Shown here: positions 4,613 to 21,398 of the stretch, piece after piece
Position numbering within the stretch: position 1 is the first letter of the stretch
Layout of the letters: each line of letters begins with the position of its first letter
Assembly (NCBI GenBank): GCA_019058515.1
Contig: JAHPYY010000188.1
Span: forward strand, 1 to 21,398
Reading direction: 5' to 3'
Length of the DNA stretch: 21,398 bases
From: Promethearchaeota archaeon
GTDB lineage: Archaea; Asgardarchaeota; Lokiarchaeia; Sigynarchaeales; SOKP01
The notes under the pieces: generated by a model
The model's database searches: none
What the model was told of the DNA's origin: nothing
The model's input: only the letters and a program-made list of their open reading frames with translations
Made by a program: the position numbers and the translations under genes

Positions 4613-4618
4613 GTTCTT

Positions 4619-4624
4619 CTCCTT
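4619..4624 (-). promoter_or_regulatory. Shine-Dalgarno of the eS1 gene
   Basis: On the minus strand AAGGAG lies six bases before the eS1 ATG, within the 18-base gap after the uS15 stop codon. It is one of the few clear ribosome-binding sites in the window and fixes the eS1 start at 4612. Confidence 0.8.
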
Positions 4625-4630
4625 TATTTC

Positions 4631-5089: not shown

Positions 5090-5096
5090 ATTAAAA

Positions 5097-5109
5097 TTTC
5101 ACGGTGAAA
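5097..5109 (-). promoter_or_regulatory. 13-base palindrome in the uS15 leader
   Basis: TTTCAC-G-GTGAAA is a perfect inverted repeat with a single central base, 7 to 19 bases before the uS15 ATG. In RNA it could make a small stem that includes the weak GTGA ribosome-binding sequence; in DNA it has the symmetry of a dimeric repressor site. Ribosomal protein uS15 controls its own translation in bacteria, which makes the position suggestive, but a palindrome this short can arise by chance. Confidence 0.3.
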
Positions 5110-5141
5110 ATGTTGTTTCTTTACAAACCATACAGAATAAG

Positions 5142-5160
5142 ATTAATAAAATATAATAAA
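5142..5160 (-). promoter_or_regulatory. Candidate TATA region for the uS15-eS1 unit
   Basis: Read on the minus strand, TTTATTATATTTTATTAAT is a continuous A/T stretch with a TATA-like core. It would set transcription start near 5125 and give a leader of about 35 bases that contains the palindrome. The surrounding DNA is A+T-rich, so the exact box is uncertain. Confidence 0.4.
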
Positions 5161-5244
5161 ATAAGAATTTTCCTATATTTTTAGTTGGTTGAACCACATT
5201 GATTAATCCAGTCATAGATGTTTAATTTGTCAAGAAATACTGAC

Positions 5245-5254
5245 CTTAAAAATA
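5245..5254 (+). promoter_or_regulatory. TATA-like box placing a leaderless start for the rdgB-like gene
   Basis: CTTAAAAATA is centred about 27 bases before the ATG at 5276. Archaeal TATA boxes lie about 25-27 bases before the transcription start, so the mRNA would begin at or next to the ATG. The lack of any Shine-Dalgarno before this gene agrees with leaderless translation. Confidence 0.5.
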
Positions 5255-5275
5255 GGTGTTTCTTTATTAATTCCC

Positions 5276-5866
5276 ATGAAGAGAGAAAATCAGAAAAAAA
5301 TTTATTTTATAACTGGAAATGTGAATAAATTTCAAGAAGTAAAGGACAAGTTTAATCAATCTTTACCTAATTACGAATTAATTATGAAAAATTTCAATCC
5401 TATAGAGATCCAAGCTAAAACTTTGGAAGAGGTTGCCTTATTTAAACTCCATAGCGTTAGAGATTTAATTGAAGGATCCTACTTCATCGAAGATGCGGGA
5501 CTATTCGTTGATGTCCCATTAAGCGGATTTCCCGGGGTATATTCTTCATATGTGTTTAAAACAATTGGTAATGAAGGAATTTTAAAGCTCATATCGGATT
5601 TTGAAACTAGCCAAGCTCACTTCGAAGCAGTTATAGCGTTATTTATAGAAAACGCTGAAAAACCATTTTTCTTTCGAGGAGTTGTGAAAGGTCAGATATC
5701 TAACAAAATTAGGGGTATGAATGGGTTTGGATTTGACCCTATTTTCAAACCTGAAGAGATACCAGAAAAAACTTTTGGTGAGATTACTCAGCAAGAAAAG
5801 AATACAATATCCCATCGAGCAAAAGCCCTCGATCAATTGATCCGTTTTCTAAAAGAAAGAACTTAA
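5276..5866 (+). CDS. rdgB: Non-canonical purine NTP pyrophosphatase (XTP/dITP diphosphatase, RdgB/HAM1 family)
   Basis: House-cleaning enzyme that hydrolyses ITP, dITP and XTP to the monophosphate and pyrophosphate, keeping deaminated purines out of DNA and RNA. The 196-aa protein has the usual length and all family marks: ITGNVNKFQEV at the N-terminus (phosphate/base pocket), FIEDAGLFVD with the metal-binding Asp, LSGFPGVYSSYV, then GFGFDPIF and SHRAKAL near the C-terminus. The start is supported by the TATA-like element 27 bases upstream, which suggests a leaderless message. It diverges from the uS15 gene and ends 15 bases from the end of the convergent permease gene. It has no obvious functional link to the transporter cluster. 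Confidence 0.95.
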   Translation: MKRENQKKIYFITGNVNKFQEVKDKFNQSLPNYELIMKNFNPIEIQAKTLEEVALFKLHSVRDLIEGSYFIEDAGLFVDVPLSGFPGVYSSYVFKTIGNEGILKLISDFETSQAHFEAVIALFIENAEKPFFFRGVVKGQISNKIRGMNGFGFDPIFKPEEIPEKTFGEITQQEKNTISHRAKALDQLIRFLKERT

Positions 5867-5881
5867 CAAAAAGAGAGAATA

Positions 5882-8854
5882 TCAGAAAGTTTGCCGGAAG
5901 ATATCCATGATAGATTGTCGCCCAAGCTTAATCAATATTATATAAATCCCCACTATCCCTACAGCTACTGATATTATGAACACTCTAAACAATACATCAT
6001 AAGGTATATCAAAGATTATAGGCATTTCCGTTATTAATCCGAGGTTGGTTTGCATTAGATAAGCAGAATAAGTCCCGATAATTGTTCCTAAAATTCCTGC
6101 TGATAACATTATTATCATACTTTCTATGAGAAACATGCTCCGGATGTTTTTTGATTTTAATCCCATTGACCTTAAAATACCAATTTCGAATTTTCGCTCC
6201 ATAAATACCGCGTACATCGAACTTATTAGTCCAAAAATGCATATTAACACTGTAAACATTAGAATAATTTCCAACACAATGCTTTCTCGTCTATTCATAT
6301 CATCCAAGTAATTAATTTTCGAAATTGCATCGTCGATAATAAAGCTTCTCTCTCTGTAAATATTTCTAATGTCAGATTTTATACTTTTAATGCTTTCTTC
6401 GGAGTTATCTAAGAGTTTAATGTGAATTTTATCCACAATCATGTCTGGTTCGCCTATATTTGGGGTATCCATTAGCCTATTGTAATTATCTGAAGAAACC
6501 ATCACACCCCCTCCGTACGCTGAGGATTCTGAGCTTCTAAAGTTGAAAAAGCCAGGAATCCCTCCAGAAATACCTGCGACCCTAAACAGAGTAATATTAC
6601 CGGGATCATTTTCAACATGGGGATTAATAAAGGTAAGTCTGACCGTTTCACCTACATCTTGTACCCCCAATACGGTTGCAATTGATTTAGCTATAATGCA
6701 TGTGTTGTTATGTTCGAAGAGTTCTCCAAAGGAATACTCAGAATTTGAACCTGGACTACTCCAAATTAATAGCTCGGGATCGACGAGTTGTTCAAAATTT
6801 TCATCAATTCCTATGAAACCAGCTTCTAGGTCATTATGATTAGCGATATCCGCTACTCTAACTTCGTATTTTGTACTTCCTTGACTCGCATAAAATTGAA
6901 ATAAATCGGTTATTGCCGTTTCAGACTCTTCTTCCTCGAAACCAACCCCCTCCTCTCCTACATTAAACAGAACCGATAGTGCTGCTGTGATATCAATTGC
7001 GTTGGAATAAGAAGTTGCAGCGAGATCAACCTGAGAGAAATCTCGAATTTCTTCAAGAACGCTATTTGTAATCGAATTTTCTGGAGTGGTTCCTTGATTG
7101 ATAATAACTAAATCTACACCATATTGAAATCGTAAGTTAAGCGACATGTTTTCAGCGGACATTTGTAAATAGGTTGTCATGAAAAATATGAAGGAAAAGG
7201 AGATTGCAAACATCACTACAGTGCTAGTATTACGCCTTCTGTATCTCTTCAGTGATATTCTTAAAATATTGCTATATTTTTTGATCGCAGGAGAAACAAT
7301 GCCTAAAAATAAGCTTTGTATCAACGGGACGATACCCACTGATGCAAAGACTAAACCAATTACAATTGCAGCCAGAAGCCCAACAAAAAATATAGCAATT
7401 AACATAAAATCTCCAGTAATGAAAATTCTGGGCATTAGAATAAAAATTATAGTACCAATTGTAGATATTGAAATCCCAATCAAAAAACTTTTAACGTTCA
7501 TGCTCCCCTCCTTAGAGATTTCCCATCCCTCCTCTTTTGATTGAAATGGAGTAATTGACTTAATTAAATCGAGTTTGGATGTTTTTATTGCTGGAAGTAA
7601 GGAGACTCCTAAAGCAACTGAGATCCCAATAATGAGGACTAAAACTACTGTTTCTGGAAGGATAATAAAGATAACATCAATCCCGCTAAAGAAGTCGATA
7701 TCATTGACTTCCATGACCACTCTAGAAATCGGCTCATTAAAAATTAAGCCTAAAGTGATACCTAAAACCGATCCAACAACTCCCATTAGAAATCCCTCGA
7801 ACAGCACGATTCTAAAAGGGAACACTTTTTTTCCCCCAACGACTCTTAAAACTCCAAATTCTCTAACACGTTCTTCTGAGGATGTCGAAAGTATAGCGTT
7901 TATCAAAATACCCGTTATTAACATTGACAATATCATTATGAACCAGAATACTATTGTAGTACCCATCATTGTAAATGATCCACCCTCTAATTCTTCTAGT
8001 TTAGGCATAGCAACAGTATAGTCATTTAAATCCAACCGTTCCTGGACATTGTTCGCTATAAGTCGGAGCTTTCTAGTTGTTAGGTCTAAATTGCTTGCGT
8101 CGTAAACCGTTTCGGGATTCTCAATCGTTCCATATATATAATTGACTTCGTCTTTCCTATTTAAAAAGTCTTGTGCTTCAGGTAAATTAACAAGAATTAA
8201 AGCAGTTTCGAAATCCAAGAATTTTTGTTCATGTTCGCATATTTCAACAACTGTTAAATCCATTTCATAGTCTTGATAAGATATAAATATTTTATCTTCT
8301 CTTGAAACATTTAGTAACTCTGCAGCTCTTTTTAATAACACGCATTCTCCCTTTTCGGGATTATTTACATATAGTTGATTTGTCTTTTCTCCATTTTCGT
8401 CGACTATGAATAATTTTCCCATATTCCCATTCTCAGCTTCTTTTTTAATATCTAAACCGTACAACTCCAAAGTTCCGGATGCAGATGTTTTATTCGAGCT
8501 TGTCTTGACGAGCGCCATTATTCTAGCGAAAAATTCCTCAACCCCTTCTACATTATCTAATTGATTTGTAATAATAGATTGATCAAAATATGGGTCGAAT
8601 GTTAAGTCTGATTTAACTGTCCTAGTTATCATTATATCCGCAGCTCCTGTTGTTGCGGTAACCATTCGTACATAGTTATAAGACTGAGTGTTATTAAGCA
8701 TCCCTATAGATGTTAAAATAAAAAGAGAGATAGTTATCCCGCTTATGCCAAAAAAAAATTTGGCTTTATCTCGTTTTATATCAAGCCAAGAATGCTTGAT
8801 GAATTGTAGATTAAATAATAGTGTAATTTGATGTACAATATTTCTTTTATTCAT
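5882..8854 (-). CDS. FtsX/MacB-type ABC transporter permease, 10 TM (second permease of the cluster)
   Basis: Membrane subunit of a type VII (mechanotransmission) ABC transporter, 990 aa with about ten membrane segments: one at residues 33-53, three at about 299-321, 348-371 and 394-420, two linking ones at about 457-475 and 483-510, one at 544-562, and three at the C-terminus (about 859-882, 909-933, 955-978). Between TM1 and TM2, and between TM7 and TM8, lie outer domains of about 245 and 300 residues. The two FtsX cores carry the coupling-helix motifs ERVREFGVLRVVG (328-340) and ERKFEIGILRSMG, which meet the ATPase. The layout resembles YbbP and is paralogous to the 1010-aa permease. It is the last gene of the cluster, 33 bases after the protease, with no Shine-Dalgarno. 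It probably pairs with the 1010-aa permease as in LolC/LolE; a homodimer is possible. Confidence 0.88.
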   Translation of the reverse strand: MNKRNIVHQITLLFNLQFIKHSWLDIKRDKAKFFFGISGITISLFILTSIGMLNNTQSYNYVRMVTATTGAADIMITRTVKSDLTFDPYFDQSIITNQLDNVEGVEEFFARIMALVKTSSNKTSASGTLELYGLDIKKEAENGNMGKLFIVDENGEKTNQLYVNNPEKGECVLLKRAAELLNVSREDKIFISYQDYEMDLTVVEICEHEQKFLDFETALILVNLPEAQDFLNRKDEVNYIYGTIENPETVYDASNLDLTTRKLRLIANNVQERLDLNDYTVAMPKLEELEGGSFTMMGTTIVFWFIMILSMLITGILINAILSTSSEERVREFGVLRVVGGKKVFPFRIVLFEGFLMGVVGSVLGITLGLIFNEPISRVVMEVNDIDFFSGIDVIFIILPETVVLVLIIGISVALGVSLLPAIKTSKLDLIKSITPFQSKEEGWEISKEGSMNVKSFLIGISISTIGTIIFILMPRIFITGDFMLIAIFFVGLLAAIVIGLVFASVGIVPLIQSLFLGIVSPAIKKYSNILRISLKRYRRRNTSTVVMFAISFSFIFFMTTYLQMSAENMSLNLRFQYGVDLVIINQGTTPENSITNSVLEEIRDFSQVDLAATSYSNAIDITAALSVLFNVGEEGVGFEEEESETAITDLFQFYASQGSTKYEVRVADIANHNDLEAGFIGIDENFEQLVDPELLIWSSPGSNSEYSFGELFEHNNTCIIAKSIATVLGVQDVGETVRLTFINPHVENDPGNITLFRVAGISGGIPGFFNFRSSESSAYGGGVMVSSDNYNRLMDTPNIGEPDMIVDKIHIKLLDNSEESIKSIKSDIRNIYRERSFIIDDAISKINYLDDMNRRESIVLEIILMFTVLICIFGLISSMYAVFMERKFEIGILRSMGLKSKNIRSMFLIESMIIMLSAGILGTIIGTYSAYLMQTNLGLITEMPIIFDIPYDVLFRVFIISVAVGIVGIYIILIKLGRQSIMDIFRQTF

Positions 8855-8887
8855 AGCTTTTTTCTAAATTAAATTCAATATTTTTTA

Positions 8888-11800
8888 TCATAAATCCAGA
8901 ATACTTATTTTATCTCGTGATTTTTCAAAAGGTTTTGGTATTTTCCCTTTTTCAAGTAAAATTTCGTTAATCTCTTCTTTGGATCTCCTCAATAATTTTA
9001 TGTCATTGCATTTATCGCAAAAGTGGTCGTTTCTCGGCTCATCTCTGAAATTCCATTTTCCACAGTTCATGCAATTGTAAGCAACATAAATATCGTCTCT
9101 TTTACATGTAGGACACATAATATCAAACTCGTTTGATGAGTACCAAGTGCTACAACTCTTACAGTATAATGTTAAAGGATTATTAGAGTCTCCCTCTTCT
9201 ATTTCCTCAATTATTTTAATAACTTGTTCTTTGTCGATTTCGCTTAATCTAACAGATTCAGCGAAATTATTTCTTAATCTCATTACTAAATATTTACCTT
9301 TTTTTTCCGCAAATATATACAATCCTATAGCTGAGGCAATACCTATGAAGAGAATCACTATCCAAAAACCCCACCTATTCCAATTTAGAAGGCCGTTATC
9401 AATAAATACCGTAAGGATAGACTCTGCTCTATTTCCCTCTGCATCATATGCAACGACTCTTATTTCCTTAGTTCCATCCATATCGAGTGTAGTGTCCCAA
9501 CTGTATAATAATACATGCGTAGATGCGTTGTATTGAAGCTGTTCGACATCGACAATCTGATTGTCGATAAATAATTGTATTTTCGAAGAGTCTAATTCTA
9601 TATTGTCTGTAATGTTAATAGTTATGTTAAAAACCGAATTTATTATATCGTTGTTTTTAAGGTCGATAAATTTAATTTCAGGGGGAATTAGATCTGTGGA
9701 TTTGTCATATCCGATGTAAATGTTAGACAGTAGACATCCATATCCCAAAGAAAGAGGCACATTATCGTTCGAAATGAATCTAAATTTAACCATTATCGTA
9801 TCACTTGGATAATCTGATAAATCTATGGACTCATTCCCCACCAATTCTTCGGAATTATAGTTATATTCTAGAATCTCATCCCAATTTCCTCCATAATCGT
9901 CACTCACATATACAACGCATCTATCAGCGTCATTCTCGGATATATTCGTCTCACTTTGAAAAGAAAATTGGTAGTCAAATTTTAGAAACACATCGTAATC
10001 ACTTAATAGTCTGATTGGTTTTGTTATTAAGCAAATATCCCAATTTGTTCCATATCCTTGGAATCCCGAGCCAAAACTATTTCCTAACCCTCCATAAAGA
10101 TATTCGGCTTTTGCTCTAATGATTGGATGCCACGTATTATCTCCCCTAAACCAAGCAGAATTTTCTTTTTTATTTGGATTACCAGTGATGTAATAGTCAT
10201 CAGTAGAGTCGTTAGAGAATTGATATCCAATATCCTTTCCGGAAATTTGTAGGTTATAGTCTAACTCCTTTGGCTCGATAAAGGTGACATGAGACTCGTT
10301 AAAAATATACCATTTAGAAGTTATAGAAAATTTCCCATCAGTTGCATGAAATCTAAATGTATAATTGCTAAATCCTCCCAAAATTAAAGTCCTGTTGAAT
10401 TCAATTCCCCTCCCTCGTTGTTTTAAACTAATTGCATCCCAATCTCCATAAAGATTATACATTTCATATTTTGTACCATCAATTTCTAGACTAACTTGTG
10501 TAGGATAATTGTTTTCTTGATCATAGTAGAAACACGAGAAAGAAAAATCGTCGAACTCGGTTAATTCTCTAGGAAAATAATTTAAAGTGTAATTAAATGT
10601 TATTTCAGGGGCAATATTGTTTCTGAAGTCGTATAAAGCAAAGTAATCAAACATAATTCCTTTATAATTTACAGGATCTATTTCTTCATCCGTTTCTACA
10701 TTTATTCTAAATTGAATGTAGTTACCCTTATATTTACTAATGTTTATATTCTCTATAAACCACTCCTTTTCTATTTCTGTATATGTTTTAAGAGTAATCC
10801 ACCCCGTCCAATTAGGATTTATTTGCAAATATGCGTAATCCCCTGAGTTGATACTCAATCTCAAGCCAACTTTTACATAAGGTTGCACGGAAATCCCTAA
10901 GTCGGTTAGATTTAACAATGGACTAGTTATTATCCCATTGGGAAAGTCTTCGTCAGGAATAGGAATCTGATATGTATAATTTGTAGCATAATTGTGATCT
11001 TGACCAAAATATGCGGTTTTCCATGAAGTATCGTAGATTTGTTCCCTGTTATCAATAGTGTTATTTTGTTGCAAAATACCCCATCCCTCTCCACTTATAC
11101 TCCATCCCCCTGGATATCCACTCGCAAAGTTAATTGCGTAAGGAAAAGCTGCTGATTCAAGAGGAATAAAGATCTCAATAGAAAAATTTCCTTCAAATGG
11201 TAAATTTATAGGACCTAAACCATCAGAAGCAACAAAAAAGTAGTGATATGTGCCATTAGTTTTAAACTGGACTTCCTCTGACCAATACAATTCACCTTTA
11301 GTAAAATTCGGCTGAAAACTCGAGTTATACCTGGTTAAGCTAATATTTCTGTTTAATTCAATTATTGAAACATAAATTTCTTGTGGTAGCACATTATCTG
11401 CATCGTGATCTTTATATTGAACGAAAAACCGGTATTTATCAATCGTGTAATTTCTATAAGGAATAATACCTAAATCATATTCCTGCATACTCATTATTGT
11501 TGCGTTTTTTAAAAGATCATCGTCAGTATACTCAAGTTCAGGAACAGTCAACTCTGGAACTAACGAATTTTGAATATTATTTACGGTTAAATTAAAGAAA
11601 CTCGATCCTATCCTTGCCTTTACAGTAATTATACACTCTGTTTGGTTTTTCTTGGGTGTAAAGTAAAGATACGATAAATCATCATATGTCGTTCGGGAAG
11701 ATCCTAAGAGGATTGGATCTCCATGCTCAGTAGATTCATTAGAATACAAAAACAAATCCAATTCTGCAAAAGGTGATACTGCTGTTAAGTTAAAAACATA

Positions 11801-13729
11801 TTGTGTATTTGCGGTTAAGTTAATTCTTCTTGCAAACACATGAGAAGCAAGAGGATCGCTTTCAGAATTTGCCAAGGTTCCATTAACTGTTTGATTTATC
11901 GCTATTCTTTTGGTTAACGAGTCAATAGCGGCTTGAGCATTAATCCTTCCGTATCCTTCGTGCGGATCTTTTAACGCCCATTCAGATTGTATTGAATAAA
12001 GTGTTGGTGAATAGTCACTTTCATCAATATCTGTATTTGGGTCGTCCTCTCGGTCTAAATTCGTTTCTGAAGCCGTGAGTAATAGTATGCTTTTGATTTC
12101 TTTAACTACTTCCGTTAAATTTAAGGCGTTGTAATTAGACCAGTTTTTCCACTTGGCTTCGATTATATTGCTCACAACGCCTGCAACGATAGCAGTAGAA
12201 ATAGAAGTTCCATACATAGTCGTCGTTCCATTTGAAAACGCATCACCTGATAAAATAGTTCTCTGGTTGTTTATGGTACTTCCTCCCGGGGCGACGATAT
12301 CTGGCTTGATATAGTCTTCTTCTTCTAGCTCACCTCCAGCACTACTATATGAAGTTATATGGTCTAGGTCGTTTATCGCCCCAACAACAATTGCATTTTT
12401 ATTCCTTGCTAACTTATTTAATGGACTTGAAGTAGAAACTCCATCGTTTCCTGTAGCAATGATCACCAAAGTGCCATTTTTTATTATATCATCGATAACA
12501 GAGCTTACAAAACTAACATCTTCGCCTAGGGTTCCGATGCTAAGACAAACACAAGTGATATGATATTTGGATTTATTTAATTTCACACTTCTCAACGCAG
12601 AAATTAAATTTGAACTATATCCTAAACCAGATTGATTTGCCACCTTGTATGATACAATTTTAGTTTTATTTGAAATACCCGTATTAATACTATAATTCTC
12701 TATATGAGACTCATAGTGGTAAGACATATTGACTTTTACCGAGAGGGTTGGATTTGAATTAAACGATTTATGATACTTCACATACAGGTTATATATTCCA
12801 TCGTTGAAGTATCCAACTCTATATGAAATTTTAAAAATAGTGTTATTAAATTTGTTGAAAGTGTAGCTGACCTTAGTTACAGTATTATATAATTCAAACC
12901 ACACTTTATCTATATCCCCTTTATCTTCAAACCAAGAGGAGTTTATATTTACATAGGTGCTTCCTTTTGAAACATTGAATGTAAGAAGTTTAATGGAGTA
13001 ATTTTTAGATGGAGTGAATTCGTTGAAAAAATCTAAATGAGTATAATTATTTTCGATGGAAATAATAGTAGGAACCTGATTATCTCCGGTACCTGAAATT
13101 ACAGATGAAACAAAAGTACCATGACCATTATCGTCGTAAGGTTTCTCTTGCTTAGAAATGAAATCTTCCCAACCGACAATAGATCCATTTAAATCAGCAG
13201 GTTCATATTTTAAGGGAAAATAACTTTGATTTGCATTCACTCCTGTATCGAGGACTGCTATTGAAGAATTATCTAAACCCTTAAATCCATTGTTGTACCA
13301 GGTAGAGTTAATCGCCTGGGTTTGAACAGTAGCGTAACTCATTTCAGTTTCCATAATTTCGTCCATTTCGATCGATGCTCCTGAAACAGAGTTCAAGTAA
13401 TCCTCAAATAATGTGTAGTTCTCATTAGGTAGATTACCGGAGAATCCCGATACAATGTCAAAAGTTGAATTCCAGAGGTTAGTGATATTGCCACCATATT
13501 TGCTTGAGGTAAAATTATTTAAAATATAATTATTTATAAAAGATGAATTAAAGAAAACCAAAACTTTTACCGCATTACCACTACTTGCTAATTTAACATT
13601 TTCATCCCTAGTCCCTTCTTTAAAATAGAAGATTTCTGTTTGATCGATATTAAAATGCGAAAAAACTAGGGGAGTCAACAATACTAAGGTAATAGAAACG
13701 AACAAGAAAAGCTTACCTTTACTTTTCAT
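8888..13729 (-). CDS. Giant membrane-anchored subtilisin-family (S8) protease with cytosolic zinc ribbons
   Basis: Extracellular serine protease of 1613 aa. In order: signal peptide (1-25), I9-like propeptide (about 50-125), S8 catalytic domain with Asp161 (AVLDTG), His203 (NGHGTFV), oxyanion Asn428 (ATGND) and Ser509 (GTSISTA), a PPC-like beta domain (about 612-720), then Ig-like and jelly-roll-like domains in alternation up to 1445, a membrane segment (1454-1473) and a cytosolic tail with four Cys-x2-Cys pairs (1523-1574). All catalytic residues are present, although the Pro usual after GTSMAT is Ala. A beta-rich insert of about 140 residues sits between the His and the Asn. Many N-x-S/T sequons indicate an outward, glycosylated ectodomain. 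The start codon directly follows the stop codon of the 1293-aa gene; a run of seven G at 13738-13744 eight bases before the ATG can serve as ribosome-binding site. Substrate unknown; cluster context suggests control by the ABC module. Confidence 0.9.
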   Translation of the reverse strand: MKSKGKLFLFVSITLVLLTPLVFSHFNIDQTEIFYFKEGTRDENVKLASSGNAVKVLVFFNSSFINNYILNNFTSSKYGGNITNLWNSTFDIVSGFSGNLPNENYTLFEDYLNSVSGASIEMDEIMETEMSYATVQTQAINSTWYNNGFKGLDNSSIAVLDTGVNANQSYFPLKYEPADLNGSIVGWEDFISKQEKPYDDNGHGTFVSSVISGTGDNQVPTIISIENNYTHLDFFNEFTPSKNYSIKLLTFNVSKGSTYVNINSSWFEDKGDIDKVWFELYNTVTKVSYTFNKFNNTIFKISYRVGYFNDGIYNLYVKYHKSFNSNPTLSVKVNMSYHYESHIENYSINTGISNKTKIVSYKVANQSGLGYSSNLISALRSVKLNKSKYHITCVCLSIGTLGEDVSFVSSVIDDIIKNGTLVIIATGNDGVSTSSPLNKLARNKNAIVVGAINDLDHITSYSSAGGELEEEDYIKPDIVAPGGSTINNQRTILSGDAFSNGTTTMYGTSISTAIVAGVVSNIIEAKWKNWSNYNALNLTEVVKEIKSILLLTASETNLDREDDPNTDIDESDYSPTLYSIQSEWALKDPHEGYGRINAQAAIDSLTKRIAINQTVNGTLANSESDPLASHVFARRINLTANTQYVFNLTAVSPFAELDLFLYSNESTEHGDPILLGSSRTTYDDLSYLYFTPKKNQTECIITVKARIGSSFFNLTVNNIQNSLVPELTVPELEYTDDDLLKNATIMSMQEYDLGIIPYRNYTIDKYRFFVQYKDHDADNVLPQEIYVSIIELNRNISLTRYNSSFQPNFTKGELYWSEEVQFKTNGTYHYFFVASDGLGPINLPFEGNFSIEIFIPLESAAFPYAINFASGYPGGWSISGEGWGILQQNNTIDNREQIYDTSWKTAYFGQDHNYATNYTYQIPIPDEDFPNGIITSPLLNLTDLGISVQPYVKVGLRLSINSGDYAYLQINPNWTGWITLKTYTEIEKEWFIENINISKYKGNYIQFRINVETDEEIDPVNYKGIMFDYFALYDFRNNIAPEITFNYTLNYFPRELTEFDDFSFSCFYYDQENNYPTQVSLEIDGTKYEMYNLYGDWDAISLKQRGRGIEFNRTLILGGFSNYTFRFHATDGKFSITSKWYIFNESHVTFIEPKELDYNLQISGKDIGYQFSNDSTDDYYITGNPNKKENSAWFRGDNTWHPIIRAKAEYLYGGLGNSFGSGFQGYGTNWDICLITKPIRLLSDYDVFLKFDYQFSFQSETNISENDADRCVVYVSDDYGGNWDEILEYNYNSEELVGNESIDLSDYPSDTIMVKFRFISNDNVPLSLGYGCLLSNIYIGYDKSTDLIPPEIKFIDLKNNDIINSVFNITINITDNIELDSSKIQLFIDNQIVDVEQLQYNASTHVLLYSWDTTLDMDGTKEIRVVAYDAEGNRAESILTVFIDNGLLNWNRWGFWIVILFIGIASAIGLYIFAEKKGKYLVMRLRNNFAESVRLSEIDKEQVIKIIEEIEEGDSNNPLTLYCKSCSTWYSSNEFDIMCPTCKRDDIYVAYNCMNCGKWNFRDEPRNDHFCDKCNDIKLLRRSKEEINEILLEKGKIPKPFEKSRDKISILDL
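9008..9163 (-). other. Double zinc-ribbon segment in the cytosolic tail of the protease
   Basis: This stretch codes for residues 1523-1574 of the protease, with four Cys-x2-Cys pairs: CKSC, CPTC, CMNC and CDKC. They pair as two four-cysteine zinc ribbons of the rubredoxin-knuckle type. They lie about 50 residues after the membrane segment at 1454-1473 and so should be in the cytosol, on the opposite side from the protease domain. Confidence 0.75.
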
Positions 13730-16700
13730 TTAATTTTCCCCCCCTGGTTCATTCAGATTAAATCTTCCTTCGATGTCGTTAGATTTTTGCATTCCATCGC
13801 GGAAGATCTCTAACCGTTTTCTTAGAGTGTGCTCAATTTTAAATATCGAATCTCTTGAGGATAATTTTAACAACGAAGATTCGTATCTTTCCATTTCCAA
13901 TTTTACTCGTTGATATCCTAGTTGTTTGCGATAATATAACAAAAGGAAAATAGTTGATAATATAGCAGGTATCAGCACGAAGAAGTATTGAAGTAGTGGT
14001 GGAGCAATCACCATTATACTTAATGGGTTTGACTTTTGTTCGGTCTGATGGATGTAGTAATACTCTATTGAAGCGCTTTCAAAGGTAGTTTTGGTTTGTA
14101 TCTTTGCTTGAATAGTGTAACTAACAACTTTAGATTGCCCCGGTTCTAAAACATCAATACTATTTACCAGTTTTCCATAAAGTAGAGAGAAACTATGACT
14201 TGCAAAGCTGTCTGCGTCGTTTACTTCGATGTTTTTCATTGTAATTGTTCCAGTATTTGTAACTCTTATCGAAACTTCAATAGATTCTCCAATACGAACG
14301 CTCTTTTTATCTACAAATTTCTCCATGTTAAAGGAAATGTTTCCCATTATAATTGAGTTGGAACTAGAGATCCGGATAGTTCTACTTTCTTTTCCTGAGA
14401 TGTACATTACAGCTGGGTAAAAATACCCATCCCAATCTTTCTTTACTAATTGTAGTTCCTTAGAATCAACTTCTTTATATTTAATACTATTACTAGTCAA
14501 CTGAGATGATGAAATCACGTGAAGGGATCCAAATTGGTCGTTAAGGTTTAGAGTTACTTCCTCGATATCTAACCTATTTGGGCTTAAATTTGTAAAGGAA
14601 ATGTTTAAGGTCAAGGTAGAATTAATTTTTGGAGCACTATTTGTGCTATTTAGACTAATACCTAAAATTCTTAGATAGGGTACCCTTTCAACATAATCTA
14701 CAGGAGCGCTAAACTTTATATCATTCGAATAACTTACCAATCTTGTTGATATACCATTCTTTAGAGCTTTTGGATTATGATATTCTACTCGTGCTCCAGT
14801 AATAGATGCAGAATTTGGATTGTAATAAGTAAAACTTGCTGTTGTTTCTTGTAGAGGATTCAAGTACGGAATTACGATGCTTAAATTATTTCTATAAACA
14901 TGAAAATCTTTATCGTTTTCAATAATTCCTGGAATAATGACAGATATGTTTACATCTTTAGCGTAGGTTGAACCAATGTTTTTTATAGTTATAGAATATT
15001 CATTTACAACTCCAATTGTAGAATTATATTCTTTCAGAGAAGAATAGGCTATAATGGAAGCCATATTATGAGTACTTAGTAGTATAGAATTAGATTGGAT
15101 CTCGTAAAAGGCAGATCCAATTTCATTGCTGAAACTAAGAACTATGGGTACTCGCTCCTCAAAATTAATTTCACGCTGAGAAAATCTGACATTAACCTCG
15201 TTGAGGGTAATGTTGAAACGAGATTGATTGAAAGCCTGAATTTTTAAAATTATTGTATAGTTGTTAGTGCTCTCGTAAAGCCAATCTATTGAATAGTTTA
15301 ATTTTAAGAACGAAAAAATCCTAGTATCGTTTTCGATGAAAGATAAATAGTTATCAATATTCACAAATTCCTCCTTTGTAAAATTGAAAACTTGGAAAGA
15401 GATATCTGAAATATTCTCATCTATGCTAACATCTAACAAGATTGAGACATTATCGAGTTCATAATTTTTAAAATCTATTATGCTCGAATTTTGAAATACT
15501 AGATTTAATTCAATTTCTTCTCCTTCATATTGTGGATTCGAAATGATAATCCAACTATCCTCATCATTGGCTTGCGCCATCTCAGGAGTAGTGCCTTCGT
15601 AAGTTTTGCCTTCGATTAACTCTGGCAAATTAATTAATGGGTCTACAACAAAATCGCAGGTACAAAACTCGTGATAAGAATCCAAGTCTGAGATATCTAA
15701 ATTCTGAATTTCGTACGATATCGAATCTCTAGGCTCTATTTTCCAATTATCATCGTTCCAAATGCTATCGGGATTAGTAAAATTATCACTAAAGGGATTT
15801 AAAATTGTATAAAGAAATTGATTGTCGTAGTACATGTAATCGATAAGTTGGGGCATTTCCTCGCTATAAGGAAACAAATTGGATAGGGAAAGTGATGGAA
15901 AATATTGATCAGCAACCCCATCTCCCGTACTATCAAAGTAAAACAATCTGGGAGGTTTATCAAGGTTAAGAAATTCTTCCAATGAGTTATACTCTGGATA
16001 ATAAATTTGAACGAAACCCCACAGGTCTTCATATGTAGCTTCACCAAATAGTTGTTCAATGTCAATTAATTCTAATAGATATGGCGTTTCAATTCCCCAT
16101 GCGGTCTTATTTCCTACATTTTCTACAGTTATATTTAACGTGAAGTCTCTTCTTACCCCATATGATGCATTGTCTCCAACCACCTTCTGAGTAATTTTAA
16201 GATTCTCTTCACTTTGAGTAATATTGTAACGAATAACATATTTTTCTATTGGATTTAGGAGTCCTGTTGGTAGCATTTCCAATCCTTGAAATCCAGTCAA
16301 CTGCAATGCGTTTACGATATCGTTAGGATCCTCTTTATTTGAAATTTTTACACCATTTGTCTTAATACCCTCCTTACTAAACCAAAGTGGTGAAAATGTA
16401 TAATTGGTTAACGATTCAACATCAAAATCGCTACCTGCAAATGATGAGAGTAGTCCAATTTGCTCGATTAAATAATCGCTGAACTCAAAGTTTTTGGGAA
16501 CTGAACTAATAATACTAGAATCCAACACTTGAATCTCGATTTCACTTATAAAAGCACCTACTAAAGCAATATATACTTTTTCGCTAGGATCTAATGGTTC
16601 ACCACTATAACCCATAGAACTCCATAAATCAAATTCATATTGCGAGTCTCCTATTGCACGAATTCCCTCTAGTCTTCCCTCATATTGAAGTGAAAAGTAG

Positions 16701-17611
16701 GAATAATGCGAGTTATTTAACAAAGTAGTTCCCCCAATTTCCTCAGAAAATTGATCACCGTCGCTTGACGAAGCGTTTTCCCCTCCAATACCTAAGATTT
16801 GAGAGAATTCAGAAATAATACTATTGTTAAGCGATAAATCAAAAACATCAAAATTATAATACAATTGATCTGTCGAAATGTTGATTTCTTCTTCAATAAA
16901 TTCCACCGAATTTATAAGGATATATGTAGAAGAAAGGTGATGGTTAGAACTGTAGTTTTTCGACCTTAAACGCTCGAGATCAAGAGCTTTCCAATACCCA
17001 TCTTTTGGAAAATTTGAAGTCATCTGATCTAAGTAAAATTCCCAATCTTGCAAGTATCCAACAAATCCGTAATAATTAGGGTTAGAAATGTTAATCATTA
17101 TCAAGTCGACCTTAAACTTGCTTCTAATAATGTCTAAGGCTCGATCTAACTTGGAATCAATTTGATCTTGCGTTAATTCATCGTCATAATACAATAATCC
17201 CGTAAAGGATTGAAAAGAATAACAAAATTCATTAGGATATTTCTCGTTCACTAAAACCCGAGGAAAAATTTCGGGATTAATAGCGTTTGATACACTTAGA
17301 TACATACTGCATTTTTCGAACGCAGGATCGTTTAAATCGAATTCATCAATAATATTTGTGTCATTGGTAAATAAACTTTGCTTAATTATTGATTTCGATC
17401 CAGCAACATAAGCTGAAATTTTCTCTGCATAGAGATCGGAACCAGCAATGTCAGCTGGCTTTAGACTTGAATTTTCCGTAGAAATAACTATATCTGTGTT
17501 TTCATAATTCTCTCTATAAGCATCTGTAATTGGACTTAATATAAGTAAAGTATTCAAGAGAAATAAAACAATTAAGCAGAAGAATTTCAGGGATTTGATG
17601 TCTATTTTCAC
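13730..17611 (-). CDS. Large ectoprotein with CARDB-like domains and a C-terminal TM anchor, function unknown
   Basis: I do not recognise the N-terminal part. The 1293-aa protein has a signal peptide (1-31), an unassigned region (about 40-470), and three CARDB/DUF11-like beta-sandwich segments: about 478-515 (FTLNITVENVGNKTAWGIE), one around the TIKNIGSTYAKDVNISVIIP stretch, and 1099-1200 (VSIRVTNTGTITMKNIEV). One DSTGDGVADQ segment looks like a calcium-binding Asp loop. A membrane segment at about 1206-1226 is followed by a 67-residue charged cytosolic tail, probably helical or coiled coil. N-x-S/T sequons are frequent, in line with an outer location. The start is GTG, supported by GGAG eight bases upstream. 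It lies 18 bases after a permease gene and abuts the protease gene with no gap, so it is likely a structural or scaffolding partner of the protease and transporter. That role is inferred from position only. Confidence 0.75.
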   Translation of the reverse strand: MKIDIKSLKFFCLIVLFLLNTLLILSPITDAYRENYENTDIVISTENSSLKPADIAGSDLYAEKISAYVAGSKSIIKQSLFTNDTNIIDEFDLNDPAFEKCSMYLSVSNAINPEIFPRVLVNEKYPNEFCYSFQSFTGLLYYDDELTQDQIDSKLDRALDIIRSKFKVDLIMINISNPNYYGFVGYLQDWEFYLDQMTSNFPKDGYWKALDLERLRSKNYSSNHHLSSTYILINSVEFIEEEINISTDQLYYNFDVFDLSLNNSIISEFSQILGIGGENASSSDGDQFSEEIGGTTLLNNSHYSYFSLQYEGRLEGIRAIGDSQYEFDLWSSMGYSGEPLDPSEKVYIALVGAFISEIEIQVLDSSIISSVPKNFEFSDYLIEQIGLLSSFAGSDFDVESLTNYTFSPLWFSKEGIKTNGVKISNKEDPNDIVNALQLTGFQGLEMLPTGLLNPIEKYVIRYNITQSEENLKITQKVVGDNASYGVRRDFTLNITVENVGNKTAWGIETPYLLELIDIEQLFGEATYEDLWGFVQIYYPEYNSLEEFLNLDKPPRLFYFDSTGDGVADQYFPSLSLSNLFPYSEEMPQLIDYMYYDNQFLYTILNPFSDNFTNPDSIWNDDNWKIEPRDSISYEIQNLDISDLDSYHEFCTCDFVVDPLINLPELIEGKTYEGTTPEMAQANDEDSWIIISNPQYEGEEIELNLVFQNSSIIDFKNYELDNVSILLDVSIDENISDISFQVFNFTKEEFVNIDNYLSFIENDTRIFSFLKLNYSIDWLYESTNNYTIILKIQAFNQSRFNITLNEVNVRFSQREINFEERVPIVLSFSNEIGSAFYEIQSNSILLSTHNMASIIAYSSLKEYNSTIGVVNEYSITIKNIGSTYAKDVNISVIIPGIIENDKDFHVYRNNLSIVIPYLNPLQETTASFTYYNPNSASITGARVEYHNPKALKNGISTRLVSYSNDIKFSAPVDYVERVPYLRILGISLNSTNSAPKINSTLTLNISFTNLSPNRLDIEEVTLNLNDQFGSLHVISSSQLTSNSIKYKEVDSKELQLVKKDWDGYFYPAVMYISGKESRTIRISSSNSIIMGNISFNMEKFVDKKSVRIGESIEVSIRVTNTGTITMKNIEVNDADSFASHSFSLLYGKLVNSIDVLEPGQSKVVSYTIQAKIQTKTTFESASIEYYYIHQTEQKSNPLSIMVIAPPLLQYFFVLIPAILSTIFLLLYYRKQLGYQRVKLEMERYESSLLKLSSRDSIFKIEHTLRKRLEIFRDGMQKSNDIEGRFNLNEPGGEN

Positions 17612-17619
17612 TTAATTTA

Positions 17620-17625
17620 CTCCAT
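17620..17625 (-). promoter_or_regulatory. Shine-Dalgarno that decides the GTG start of the 1293-aa gene
   Basis: ATGGAG on the minus strand, with GGAG eight bases before the GTG at 17609-17611. The ATG inside this site is followed by GAG and a TAA stop and cannot start the gene, so the GTG is the supported initiation codon. It lies in the 18-base gap after the first permease gene. Confidence 0.7.
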
Positions 17626-17629
17626 CATT

Positions 17630-20600
17630 TTACATTGTTTCTCGATATATATCAACAATTTTTTGCTTTTTAAGCTTACGTAGAAGAAATCTCATTCCGA
17701 TAAGAATAAATATAATTGAAATGGCATAAATTGCTAAAAAATTAAGCCAAGGAAATGGTGAATCGTAAGGCGTATTGCTTAACAGAATTATAGTTGAATT
17801 TAATAAATAACCCGTAAGATATCCTATAATTACTCCAATGGTGCCGCTACTCAGCATTATAATCAATGCTTCAATTATAAACATTTTACGCATTTGTTTC
17901 CCCTTTAAGCCTAAAGTTCGAACCACTCCTATTTCTTTTTTCCGTTCAATTATCGTCGAATAGGACGAAGAGAGGAGCCCAAATAAACAAATAAAAACAG
18001 TAGCAACTAAAATCAATCCAAACAATGTATCGATAATTTCAAATGTGCTCTGATTACGCTCAATAATATTCGCCAAGTTAACTAACCTATAACTATATTT
18101 TATTCGGTATACATCGTTAATCGCATCAACAACTTGGTCCGCTCTACTCAGATAATTATCTTTTAGGTTTATGAAAAATTTTTCCACCCACGCAGGACTA
18201 GGAAGTGCTAATATTTCTAAATATGTATTTTGGGAAACTAATACCCCTCCATTCCCCCCAGGAGAATTTCCAAAGCCAGATAGTCCCGGCATGTTTGAAG
18301 CGGTACCAACTATAGTGAACGGGTAAGACTCTAATTCGTTTCCTCTAGTGATTTGAATTCTGATTTTATCTCCAGTCTTCAGATCTTGATCAACAGCAAT
18401 CCCTTCTGAGACGATGCATGTATAGTTCTCGCTATTATGTAGCTCGTAAAATGAATTTTCAATACTTCCTTGCGTCATAACAAGGTACTGCGAATCAATA
18501 GTATATGTGTATTCTTCATCGATCCCGTACAAACGAATAGATGAGCTTGTTAATCCCGCGTAATCCCCAAGTTGAGCGCTAAATTCCTTATCCGAATCTG
18601 AATATATCTGAGTTAAATGTGAAGGACTAGCAATTAATGAGGAGACTCTCTCCACACCCTCGAAATTCAACAATTCTCTTTTGAATTGTGTTGTCAGAAT
18701 TTTGCTATAGTCAATGGAAAATTCATCATTTGATTGTCTTAAATTAGGTTGACTATATGAGCTATATTCTTTAGGTAAATTGAATATGAATCCATTCGTA
18801 GCACTAAAACCAAATCCGAAACCGAATCCCCCACCAGAGGTACTAATAGTATCATCCCATCCTGTGGTTTCCATTACAAGATTAGATCCATATCTCAACT
18901 GTGCTCCCAAAGAAAGTATTGCTGAGAGCGATTGGATAAAGGTCGCAGTGAATATTGCGAACGAAAAAGAAAGAGCGAAAATTATAATCGTACTAGAATT
19001 TCTTCTTTGGTACCTAAATACGAAAATTTTAATTACTTGATGTAATTTTCGTGATATTGGCTTAAATGTCATAATAACTAACCTTAATATAACAGGCATT
19101 AAACCTAAACCAGCTAAGGTTAACCCTATCAGAAATATTAGAAGTACAATAATTAAAACTGCTGCAAATAGTCCCATATCTGCCGAAACAAGGATTCTAG
19201 GGACAACAAAGTAAATAAAACCTCCATTTAACGCGAGAATCAATCCTACAAGAATTAATCTATAATTAACGGATGCTTTCTTTTGAAGGTGGTACAACGA
19301 ATCCTCGTGTCGATATGGGTGAATTGATTCGATAATCTGCAATCTTCGCACTTTAAGCGCAGGTGAAATGCTAACAAACAAACCGACTGATATACCCATC
19401 GTGTAAGTAATTATGATTGACGGTAAAGTAATTGAAAATACGAGTTGAGCATTTCCTAAAAATGATTCTCCTCCCGAAAACAACACTCGATTTGCGTACG
19501 GGATAACTAAATACTGAGTTCCAAAAATCGCTCCCAATAACCCAAAAATCGTGCCAAAGTTTACTAAAAGAAATCCCTGAACTAAAACTACTGATAAACT
19601 ATATTCTTTATGAGCTCCCAATACTCGGAAAATTCCAAATTCTCTTATCCTCTCTTCTACTGAGGTTTTCAAAATACCATTTATTAGTACTCCTGAGATT
19701 AGCATAGCGATTATCGACACGAAGATAAAAATGACTGTAACAATAACACTTACCATTTCAGAATACCCAAGAACTCCTAATTTCGGCAATGTTAAGTAAT
19801 ATTCGTCTAGTCCAAGCGCAAGTTGAATTTTAGACGCGATAGCCAAAACCGCTTGCTCTGAACCATCGATGTCTCTAACATCGTAAATATCTGCGTTTTG
19901 GCGAAAAGTGGTTATCATTTTGTTACAATGCCCTGAAAAATCTAATGTACTATTACTAAAATATTTATAAAGAGAATTTACATTTACAACTATTAAATTA
20001 TATGTACGGTAATCGTTGGGCCATTTTAAATTGAAATCGAAGATTTTCTTAACGGTATAGTTTACAGTATGATTTAACTTTATGTTTCCATGTTTTAAAG
20101 TCATGTTAATCTTAATTATATCACCTTCAGCGTATCTGATGTTATCGTTTAGTTCGTAATAGATGGCGCACTCATTTATGGAAAGGTTATTCAATTCCAT
20201 ATAGTTGGAAGTCCCAGGTTCGACGAAATTTCCGAATCCTAACTGATTTTCCAATGTAAAGTTTATCCCTGAAACCATAGCGGTCGTTTGAAACTCCGTT
20301 AACTCTGGAGAATCAAAATCTTCTGAAATATTAACCTTACCTAATACCTCCATTCTTGGAATAAAGCTTTCAATATCGTCCGAATTATTTTTTATAGTTT
20401 CAATAATGGGATTGTACTCGAAATAAGAAGATCGGTTCTTAGGTTCGCCGTTGTAATGTCTGATAGTAACTACTAAATCTTGATTACCTGCATCAATAGA
20501 TAAATAGTCAACCATCGCAAGACTAATTGAGTCAGATAAAAGGAGTACGATGGCTAGTAAAGCTACGCTAATACTCACTCCTATCATTCCTAAAATTGAC

Positions 20601-20662
20601 CTAACTTTTTGCCTCCTTATATCGCTAAACGCATAGCTGAAGATTAACTTAAGATTAGTCAT
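17630..20662 (-). CDS. FtsX/MacB-type ABC transporter permease, 10 TM (first permease of the cluster)
   Basis: Membrane subunit of a type VII ABC transporter, 1010 aa. Membrane segments lie at about 23-45, 304-328, 356-380, 409-433, 467-488, 497-524 and 555-575, plus three at the C-terminus. The two large outer domains, after TM1 and after TM7, hold about 255 and 300 residues. The coupling-helix motifs ERIREFGIFRVLG (337-349) and ERKKEIGVVRTLG match those of the 990-aa permease, and the order of parts is the same, so the two are paralogues from an old duplication. An unusual GGGFGFGFGF tract (about 610-619) sits at the start of the second outer domain. It follows the ATPase gene by 63 bases and precedes the 1293-aa gene by 18. 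No Shine-Dalgarno is visible before its ATG. The stop directly follows RETM; the paralogue ends similarly in RQTF. Confidence 0.9.
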   Translation of the reverse strand: MTNLKLIFSYAFSDIRRQKVRSILGMIGVSISVALLAIVLLLSDSISLAMVDYLSIDAGNQDLVVTIRHYNGEPKNRSSYFEYNPIIETIKNNSDDIESFIPRMEVLGKVNISEDFDSPELTEFQTTAMVSGINFTLENQLGFGNFVEPGTSNYMELNNLSINECAIYYELNDNIRYAEGDIIKINMTLKHGNIKLNHTVNYTVKKIFDFNLKWPNDYRTYNLIVVNVNSLYKYFSNSTLDFSGHCNKMITTFRQNADIYDVRDIDGSEQAVLAIASKIQLALGLDEYYLTLPKLGVLGYSEMVSVIVTVIFIFVSIIAMLISGVLINGILKTSVEERIREFGIFRVLGAHKEYSLSVVLVQGFLLVNFGTIFGLLGAIFGTQYLVIPYANRVLFSGGESFLGNAQLVFSITLPSIIITYTMGISVGLFVSISPALKVRRLQIIESIHPYRHEDSLYHLQKKASVNYRLILVGLILALNGGFIYFVVPRILVSADMGLFAAVLIIVLLIFLIGLTLAGLGLMPVILRLVIMTFKPISRKLHQVIKIFVFRYQRRNSSTIIIFALSFSFAIFTATFIQSLSAILSLGAQLRYGSNLVMETTGWDDTISTSGGGFGFGFGFSATNGFIFNLPKEYSSYSQPNLRQSNDEFSIDYSKILTTQFKRELLNFEGVERVSSLIASPSHLTQIYSDSDKEFSAQLGDYAGLTSSSIRLYGIDEEYTYTIDSQYLVMTQGSIENSFYELHNSENYTCIVSEGIAVDQDLKTGDKIRIQITRGNELESYPFTIVGTASNMPGLSGFGNSPGGNGGVLVSQNTYLEILALPSPAWVEKFFINLKDNYLSRADQVVDAINDVYRIKYSYRLVNLANIIERNQSTFEIIDTLFGLILVATVFICLFGLLSSSYSTIIERKKEIGVVRTLGLKGKQMRKMFIIEALIIMLSSGTIGVIIGYLTGYLLNSTIILLSNTPYDSPFPWLNFLAIYAISIIFILIGMRFLLRKLKKQKIVDIYRETM

Positions 20663-20725
20663 GGGTATTAAAGTGGAGTCAGAATATGTAGTTTAAACAT
20701 TTTAAGCTATTGCTAAGAAATGTAA
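20663..20725. other. 63-base spacer inside the transporter cluster
   Basis: This is the longest gap in the cluster. It contains no clear TATA box, Shine-Dalgarno or hairpin, so I see no reason to place an internal promoter here. Read-through from the ATPase gene is the simplest reading. Confidence 0.4.
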
Positions 20726-21398
20726 TTATCTTAAAATTAGAAGCTCTCCTTCTATTTTGGCATTTAAATTGTTTTCTTCTATCAATTCTCGTAACACATC
20801 GTTAAAATGCTCCGGCAAATTCAATACAATCGCTGAGGGAACAGAACTCTTTATGTCTGCCACTCTTATTTCCGATTTGCCAGAATTGGAAAAAAGATAT
20901 TCATAAATCTTACTCTTACATTTTTCTTTATTTAGTTCCGCTTCTTGCTTTCTTTTAAGCTCCATTGATTGAGTCTCCTTTAATCCACCAACTTTACCCT
21001 CGTGAGTAAGCTTACCGTCTCGCATGTGTAGAGTTCTGCTAGCGAACTCAGAAACAACCGCATCGTGGCTTACCGCTACAAATGTAGCTCCTTTTCTATT
21101 TAAATCTCTAAGAAGATTAAGTACTAAGATACCAGTTTTGCTATCTAAATCTCCCGTAGGTTCGTCTAAGACACAAATTGCTGGATCATTGGCGAATGCT
21201 CTTGCTATAGCTACTCTCTGCTGTTCTCCTCCGGAAAGTTCGGAAGGGGTGTGATGCGCTCGCTCGTCTAATCCTACGAGTCTAAGCAAATCCATCGCGC
21301 GCTTTCTCTTCCCACGACGGCTTAACTTGCCCGAAAAATGCAATGGAACCATCACATTTTCAATAGCGGTCATTTGTGGCAATAGATTATAAAATTGA
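20726..21398 (-). CDS. LolD/FtsE-type ABC ATPase with C-terminal extension (N-terminus beyond window)
   Basis: ATP-binding subunit that should drive the two FtsX-type permeases. The reading frame stays open to the right edge: QFYNLLPQMTAIENV is the Q-loop region of this family, so the Walker A motif lies outside and the gene is incomplete, not short. Visible downstream are LSGGEQQRVAIARAF (ABC signature), CVLDEPTGDLDS (Walker B and D-loop) and AVSHD (H-switch). The wording is that of the MacB/LolD/FtsE group. After the usual end of the domain (MRDGKLTHEG) about 88 further residues follow: a Lys/Glu-rich linker and then a compact segment ending in LLILR that looks like a small winged-helix-type domain. 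This extension is not standard for LolD-like ATPases. The gene is the first visible member of the minus-strand cluster. Confidence 0.92.
   Translation of the reverse strand, partial: QFYNLLPQMTAIENVMVPLHFSGKLSRRGKRKRAMDLLRLVGLDERAHHTPSELSGGEQQRVAIARAFANDPAICVLDEPTGDLDSKTGILVLNLLRDLNRKGATFVAVSHDAVVSEFASRTLHMRDGKLTHEGKVGGLKETQSMELKRKQEAELNKEKCKSKIYEYLFSNSGKSEIRVADIKSSVPSAIVLNLPEHFNDVLRELIEENNLNAKIEGELLILR

What the first reader, a model, noticed from the sequence alone, without database searches (positions are those of the whole stretch)
5882..21398. Candidate ATP-driven cell-surface protease machine: ABC ATPase, two FtsX-type permeases, a large ectoprotein and a giant subtilase in one cluster
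Seen: five same-strand genes with gaps of 63, 18, 0 and 33 bases: ATPase, permease, ectoprotein, S8 protease, permease. Known: type VII ABC systems do not always transport; FtsEX drives extracellular cell-wall hydrolases through its outer domains, LolCDE uses one ATPase with two different permeases, and YbbAP works with the secreted hydrolase TesA. Inference: this archaeal set uses cytosolic ATP hydrolysis to control or feed an external protease, perhaps for processing, release or quality control of surface proteins. I know of no described archaeal system with this exact composition, but I cannot search.
Basis: partly seen in the sequence, partly recalled or inferred. Interest (0 to 1): 0.75.

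Follow-up and report, generated by a model that had tools for sequence, protein, structure and literature searches.

The report
Lokiarchaeal surface ABC complex, optional protease

The parts
20726..21397 (-). ABC ATPase, LolD/MacB-type, C-terminal 223 aa (5' end outside the window)
   Evidence: PF00005; best solved chains by profile A6 are MJ0796, then LolD and others; signature motif and Walker B intact here, Walker A read in relatives
17630..20662 (-). PERM1, 1010-aa duplicated FtsX/MacB permease, about ten TM helices, two ectodomains
   Evidence: PF02687 in two stretches, PF12704; hydropathy; full-length homologue of PERM2 (hhalign 924 columns, 29% identity)
13730..17611 (-). ECTO, 1293-aa type I membrane ectoprotein
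   Evidence: signal region 10-28 and TM 1206-1224, 31 N-glycosylation sequons against a mean of 16.5 in 200 shuffles, highest 31; 19-row alignment A1
16217..17446 (-). ECTO N-terminal domain (about residues 56-465), predicted PIG-T-like fold
14012..14347 (-). ECTO membrane-proximal Ig-like domain (about residues 1089-1200), TRAP-beta-like
8888..13729 (-). S8, 1613-aa membrane-anchored subtilase
   Evidence: PF00082 E 2e-36; orthologues in 52 of 227 genomes; 52 sequons against a mean of 22.9 in 200 shuffles, highest 36
13247..13249 (-). catalytic Asp161 codon of S8
   Evidence: alignment; coordinate calculated from the gene start
13121..13123 (-). catalytic His203 codon of S8
   Evidence: alignment; coordinate calculated from the gene start
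12203..12205 (-). catalytic Ser509 codon of S8
   Evidence: alignment; coordinate calculated from the gene start
9008..9163 (-). cytoplasmic tail of S8 with eight conserved cysteines (two zinc ribbons, inferred; Pfam Zn_ribbon_6 only below its cut-off)
   Evidence: 31 of 31 aligned orthologues keep all eight; the TM at residues 1455-1473 precedes it
5882..8854 (-). PERM2, 990-aa duplicated FtsX permease, paralogue of PERM1
   Evidence: PF02687 in two stretches; tree of 43 permeases

Best explanation
The genes encode one type VII (MacB/FtsX/YbbP-class) ABC mechanotransmission complex on the outer face of the lokiarchaeal cell membrane. One ATPase serves two paralogous ten-helix permeases (PERM1, PERM2), each able by its architecture to bind two ATPase copies. 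The large ectoprotein (ECTO), coded between them, is the constant third component: a PIG-T-like N-terminal domain, a stalk of beta-sandwich domains, a TRAP-beta-like domain next to the membrane, one helix and a cytoplasmic tail. Most likely mechanism (inferred): ATP binding and hydrolysis close and open the permease ectodomains, which pull a lipid or a lipid- or helix-anchored surface protein out of the outer leaflet and hand it to ECTO, the receiving scaffold, for maturation, anchoring or release. The giant subtilase S8 is an optional subunit whose membrane anchor and cytoplasmic cysteine-rich tail hold it at the complex; in most Lokiarchaea it can cut the presented protein, in one clade it persists as a non-catalytic subunit, and in some lineages it is absent. 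Shown: gene order, domain anatomy, permease duplication, protease absence and catalytic decay. Inferred: physical assembly, substrate, direction of transfer.
For: Conserved order with short gaps. Two FtsX units and about ten helices per permease, as described for YbbP, which makes a 2:1:1 YbbA:YbbP:TesA complex (PMC12646458, passages). PERM1 and PERM2 clades supported 99/98 and 100/99, joined at 100/100 apart from 17 single permeases of other Asgard genomes; in the 20 stretches read around such relatives no ECTO was found and 18 show an ATPase next to the permease, three of them on the opposite strand. ECTO lies beside permeases in the matches listed unless cut or broken. No S8 between ECTO and PERM2 in 5 of 58 genomes; D/H/N lost in 3 of 31 S8 sequences while the eight tail cysteines remain in 31 of 31. 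PIG-T-like fold from two separate models. High sequon counts fit an external location.
Against: No interface, substrate or activity was tested. One ATPase gene for two permeases could mean two separate complexes. The complete four-gene set without S8 is seen in two genomes only (G159, G162); G104, G158 and G161 run off their contigs upstream. Whether S8 was gained in Lokiarchaea or lost in Sigynarchaeota is open. G159 has a relative of S8 in a 4595-aa frame on another contig, so a protease acting in trans is not excluded. One of the three genomes with a dead S8, G096, also has its ECTO frame interrupted near the start (133 and 1171 aa). Foldseek itself did not list PIG-T among its 50 best rows, and every sequence test against PIG-T was negative.
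Confidence: 0.5

Rival explanations
1. One reading: an ATP-driven cell-surface protease machine in which the permeases control or feed the subtilase and proteolysis is the output.
For: S8 lies directly downstream of ECTO in 48 of 58 genomes; triad and oxyanion Asn in place in 28 of 31 sequences; gene gaps are short.
Against: ECTO directly followed by PERM2, no S8, in G158, G159, G161, G162 and G104; inactive S8 in G089, G090, G096; the cytoplasmic cysteine tail is kept in all 31 S8 sequences, dead ones included.
Confidence: 0.18
2. An exporter like MacAB: the permeases expel a compound and ECTO is an external adaptor or channel extension.
For: PERM1 matches MacB_PCD and both permeases match MacB chains by profile.
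Against: No MacA- or TolC-like match among the window's proteins; ECTO is anchored by one C-terminal helix and its only solved-chain matches are TRAP-beta and one small surface protein; MacB permeases have one FtsX unit (recalled), these have two.
Confidence: 0.14
3. A transmembrane sensor or relay of the BceAB kind: outside events on ECTO and S8 are passed to the cytoplasmic tails, which bind further partners.
For: Cysteine-rich cytoplasmic tail of S8 kept in 31 of 31; the ECTO tail carries HEAT repeats in P0074, P0075 and P0090, and Rho_N over its cut-off in P0074; the ATPase has a C-terminal extension; YbbP's ten-helix topology is likened to the BceABS family in PMC12646458 (passages).
Against: No kinase or transcription regulator among the Pfam matches of the window's own flanking genes; flanks of the other loci were not annotated. 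The C-terminal extension of the ATPase varies.
Confidence: 0.12
4. Only an operon of independently acting envelope proteins: two separate ATPase-permease units and two unrelated surface proteins kept together by co-regulation.
For: Each permease is complete by itself; S8 can be missing without disturbing the rest.
Against: ECTO is kept between the two permeases across deep branches, and in the matches listed it was away from them only where contigs or matches are cut or the locus is broken; both permease clades hold Sigyn- and Lokiarchaeal members.
Confidence: 0.06

Closest known systems
YbbAP-TesA (type VII ABC plus external hydrolase, E. coli)
   Same: Ten-helix duplicated permease with ectodomains after TM1 and TM7, separate ATPase, external enzyme coded nearby (PMC12646458 passages); PERM1 hits the YbbP model at E 6.4e-6, far below its cut-off
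   Different: Two paralogous permeases, not one; a large anchored ectoprotein with no counterpart; the enzyme is a subtilase with its own membrane anchor and is optional
LolCDE
   Same: One LolD-like ATPase and two different permeases in one gene cluster
   Different: LolC and LolE are four-helix halves of one dimer (recalled); PERM1 and PERM2 each carry both halves; scores far below the Lol cut-offs
FtsEX-EnvC and other hydrolase regulators
   Same: ATPase-permease pair coupled to an external hydrolase, as a design
   Different: FtsX equivalog models match only weakly; the external enzyme here can be absent or dead
PIG-T/Gpi16, scaffold of GPI transamidase
   Same: Predicted fold of the ECTO N-terminal domain; signal peptide, ectodomain, single C-terminal helix; a protease gene next door in most genomes with the operon
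   Different: No detectable sequence similarity; GPI-T's protease PIG-K is a C13 enzyme (recalled) and S8 is a subtilase; no Gaa1 over cut-off in 30 genomes
TRAP-beta (translocon-associated protein)
   Different: TRAP-beta is a small protein of 183-186 residues in the solved chains; here the domain is one of several in a 1293-aa protein

Membership tests
Type VII ABC (MacB/FtsX/Lol/YbbP class) | FtsX-type permease with an ectodomain between the first two helices of each unit | tested here: met
   PF02687 in two stretches in each permease, hydropathy, profile hits to MacB, YtrF, LolC/E chains; no permease structure was predicted
Type VII ABC (MacB/FtsX/Lol/YbbP class) | LolD/MacB-type ATPase with Walker A, signature, Walker B and H-loop | tested here: met
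   Walker A read in relatives only, since the window cuts the gene
YbbAP-like architecture | single-chain pseudo-dimeric permease with ten helices | tested here: met
   against the description in PMC12646458 (passages); hydropathy only, not a structure
YbbAP-TesA proper | equivalog model YbbP over its cut-off, TesA-type esterase | tested here: not met
   24.4 bits against a cut-off of 999; no esterase match among the window's proteins
LolCDE | two half-size permeases, LolC/E models over cut-off | tested here: not met
   990 and 1010 aa with two FtsX stretches each; best 83 bits against 362.45
S8 subtilase | Asp-His-Ser triad in a Peptidase_S8 domain | tested here: met
   Window protein intact; Asp and His lost in 3 of 31 orthologues
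GPI transamidase (PIG-T/Gpi16) | PIG-T fold of the lumenal domain | tested here: met
GPI transamidase (PIG-T/Gpi16) | Gpi16 family model PF04113 | tested here: not met
   0 of 227 genomes over cut-off; not among the families listed for 47 ECTO members at E up to 10
GPI transamidase (PIG-T/Gpi16) | partner subunits Gaa1 and a C13 protease at the locus | tested here: not met
   Gaa1 over cut-off in 0 of 30 genomes, below it in 6; C13 over cut-off in 15 of 30, close to the operon in G094 only and there separated by an opposite-strand gene
GPI transamidase (PIG-T/Gpi16) | lipid anchors added to surface proteins | not testable with these tools
   Needs biochemistry
TRAP-beta domain | PF05753 over cut-off and matching fold | tested here: met

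The most novel reading that the evidence does not exclude
ECTO is a prokaryotic homologue of PIG-T, the scaffold of the eukaryotic GPI transamidase, fused to a TRAP-beta-like domain. The lokiarchaeal operon would then preserve an ancestral use of that scaffold: an ABC machine lifts a lipid or lipid-held protein from the membrane to the PIG-T-like receiver, where a protease (S8 in most Lokiarchaea) may trim or process it. This would be a prokaryotic context for a GPI-transamidase part and a lead on where it came from. The homology is the claim here; an actual transamidase or lipid-anchoring reaction is much less likely (I would say 0.05).
Probability: 0.4. Interest if true: 0.85.

Novelty: new variant of a known kind. 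Interest (0 to 1): 0.62.

Why it matters
It gives a worked case of stepwise growth of an ABC machine in Asgard archaea: a two-gene unit elsewhere, permease duplication plus a new ectoprotein, and an optional protease that in one clade turned into a pseudoprotease. If the PIG-T fold match reflects descent, the origin of a GPI-transamidase subunit, for which my two literature searches found no archaeal relative, becomes testable in archaea related to the ancestors of eukaryotes. It also warns against reading an adjacent enzyme as the purpose of an operon.

Tried and rejected
LolCDE analogy: rejected on permease architecture. Protease as core: rejected on absence and catalytic decay. Pfam, PDB-profile, hhalign and HMM-with-shuffles tests for PIG-T homology: all negative; the hhalign control, S8 alignment against PIG-T, scored higher than ECTO did, and the PIG-T alignment A10 is shallow (template Neff 2.1). 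C13 protease (PIG-K family) beside the operon: only in G094, and not in one transcription unit. Gaa1: none over cut-off. Literature: searches (Asgard, FtsX, ABC transporter, protease: 0 papers; YbbAP, TesA: 2; at least 3 of 4 of Lokiarchaeota, subtilisin-like, ABC transporter, surface protein: 74, 10 listed, none of those 10 mentions Lokiarchaeota; type VII ABC, archaea, MacB: 1, listing; Asgard archaea, FtsX: 2, listing; TRAP beta, Asgard: 0; Asgard, translocon-associated protein: 3; Asgard, GPI transamidase: 0; GPI transamidase, archaea, PIG-T: 3, listing), 100 (Asgard, MacB: 6, listing). The library holds open-licence papers only, so 'not described' is limited to these searches. No permease structure was predicted; both jobs went to ECTO. 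An alignment for a permease model (A8) was made and not used. The protein-family libraries phrogs and padloc and the viral structure library were not searched.
Full report
OBSERVATION. The ATPase is cut by the window's end; in the loci where it is complete it has 390-417 residues. No whole genome is held for the window. The window's ectoprotein is listed from a 991,380-base contig (P0016).

CONSERVATION. A scan of genome contigs with permease 1 gave 25 loci titled Lokiarchaeota or Lokiarchaeia. Nineteen of the 25 hold all five genes in the same order and strand, five run off their contig, and one (L009, genome G003) is broken in the ectoprotein gene, with the end of the protease gene and PERM2 1.5 Mb away. 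In 227 genomes of the phylum, the ectoprotein profile matched 89 at E 1e-5. I dropped 31 of these, whose match covers only a small part of the profile, nearly always the membrane-proximal domain; one of them, G093, does carry PERM1 and PERM2. Of the 58 kept, 41 have PERM1, ECTO, S8 and PERM2 adjacent; 48 have S8 directly after ECTO; 5 have PERM2 directly after ECTO and no S8; the other 5 are G003 and four (G098, G107, G129, G142) in which the ECTO match is cut (a genome counted as adjacent if any piece of a split gene had the neighbour; contig ends were not checked one by one). S8 orthologues, taken as the matches at E of 1e-138 or better among 110 genomes matched at 1e-20, occur in 52 genomes, 51 of them with ECTO; in the exception, G150, S8 begins at base 35 of its contig. 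PERM1 or PERM2 without a family-level ECTO is seen in G093, G102, G128, G135, G141 and G150; mostly cut matches, not followed up.

DISTRIBUTION. The homologue searches for ECTO list 120 of 194 and 23 proteins; every one that bears an organism name is an Asgard archaeon. The labels are mostly Lokiarchaeota, Promethearchaeota and Sigynarchaeota, but Hodarchaeota, Thorarchaeota, Hermodarchaeota and one Heimdallarchaeota label occur too, so a limit to Lokiarchaeia is not shown; some of these labels may be wrong.

PERMEASES. Pfam finds FtsX in two stretches in each permease and hydropathy shows about ten helices with long external stretches after the first and seventh. This is the layout described for YbbP, a pseudo-dimer binding two YbbA and one TesA (PMC12646458, outline and passages). 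PERM1 and PERM2 are homologous end to end (924 columns, 29% identity). In a tree of 43 permeases PERM1 and PERM2 are each one clade (99/98 and 100/99), both holding Sigyn- and Lokiarchaeal members, and join at 100/100 apart from 17 single permeases. Of 20 stretches read around the best PERM relatives in 19 other Asgard genomes, 18 show an ATPase next to the permease (on the opposite strand in L091, L093 and L094; L077 and L092 show none), one (L079) holds a second, distant ATPase-permease pair, one (L096) a permease in two frames, and none holds ECTO. So a two-gene unit is the likely starting point; the permease duplicated before the Sigyn/Loki split and ECTO joined between the copies. Rooting on the single permeases is an assumption.

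PROTEASE. G158, G159, G161, G162 and G104 have ECTO directly followed by PERM2. The whole four-gene set is seen in G159 (L065) and G162 (L067); the other three run off their contig upstream. The ectoprotein of G159 is identical to one named Candidatus Sigynarchaeum springense; G158, G161 and G162 group with it in the permease tree. In G104, ECTO and PERM2 are three bases apart and the flanking genes are those of the window (305-aa gene, nucleotidyltransferase, eS1, uS15, Ham1); its PERM2 lies with the window and G145 (93/92), inside a fully supported clade of S8-bearing members, so this is most simply a loss. Of 31 S8 sequences aligned (window, 19, 11), 28 have Asp, His, Asn and Ser in place. 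L057, L058 and L060 (G090, G089, G096) have Gly for Asp, Leu or Gln for His and Asp for Asn, and their N-termini lack most of the pro-region present in the others. L060 is still recognised as Peptidase_S8 at 82 bits, L057 at 43, L058 not at E 0.01. Their frames are open over 1468, 1472 and 1498 residues and all three keep the eight cysteines of the cytoplasmic tail, as do all 31. In G096 the ECTO frame is interrupted near its start (133 and 1171 aa), by mutation or sequence error; in G089 and G090 it is whole. L057, L058 and L060 form one clade in PERM1 (100/100), so one event is likely. A protein kept for its place and tail after losing its activity argues against proteolysis as the machine's purpose.

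MECHANISM. Shown: anatomy, gene order, duplication, optional and decaying protease. Inferred: that PERM1, PERM2 and ECTO form one complex; that ATP drives movement of the ectodomains as in YbbAP and LolCDE; that the cargo is a lipid or a lipid- or helix-held surface protein; and that S8, where active, cuts what is presented. The cytoplasmic additions (cysteine tail of S8; HEAT, and in P0074 Rho_N, on some ECTO tails; C-terminal extensions on the ATPase) suggest cytoplasmic partners and keep a relay function open.

VERDICT. It is a new variant of type VII ABC systems; the PIG-T-like fold is the most surprising part and the one worth testing first.

Noticed in passing
L057:11089-15495, L058:12698-17116, L060:7542-12038: S8 orthologues that have lost the catalytic Asp, His and oxyanion Asn and most of the pro-region but keep the eight tail cysteines (pseudoproteases).
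   Followed up: yes
P0074, P0075, P0090 (ectoprotein relatives of 1565-1703 aa): Ectoproteins whose cytoplasmic tail carries HEAT repeats (all three), a Rho_N match (over cut-off in P0074, just below it in P0090) and a stretch with two CxxC pairs.
   Followed up: partly
G159:C113:19591-21837: A relative of S8 inside a 4595-aa open frame in the Sigynarchaeal genome that lacks S8 in the operon.
   Followed up: no
L097:1219-2925, L098:7387-9072, L099:6754-8439, L100:6687-8195: Secreted C13 peptidases (legumain/PIG-K family by Pfam) of about 500 and 560 aa; C13 is over its cut-off in 15 of 30 genomes searched.
   Followed up: partly
G003 (L009, L029, L074): ECTO gene cut at about residue 935 and the rest of the operon 1.5 Mb away with part of ECTO and S8 missing: a real break or a misassembly.
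   Followed up: partly
L060:3516-3917 and 4026-7541; L059:10131-12774: ECTO of G096 and PERM1 of G088 each lie in two frames, by mutation or sequence error.
   Followed up: no
window 1552-3767: A 305-aa gene without a Pfam match overlapping by one base a nucleotidyltransferase with hexapeptide repeats; the pair recurs in L071.
   Followed up: no
window 5276-5866: Ham1-family gene convergent with PERM2; found at this place in L069, L071 and L075 too.
   Followed up: partly
e.g. G054:C1:1264574-1264984, G179:C218:23887-24213: Small frames of about 200 aa in other Asgard genomes matching only the membrane-proximal TRAP-beta-like domain of ECTO.
   Followed up: no
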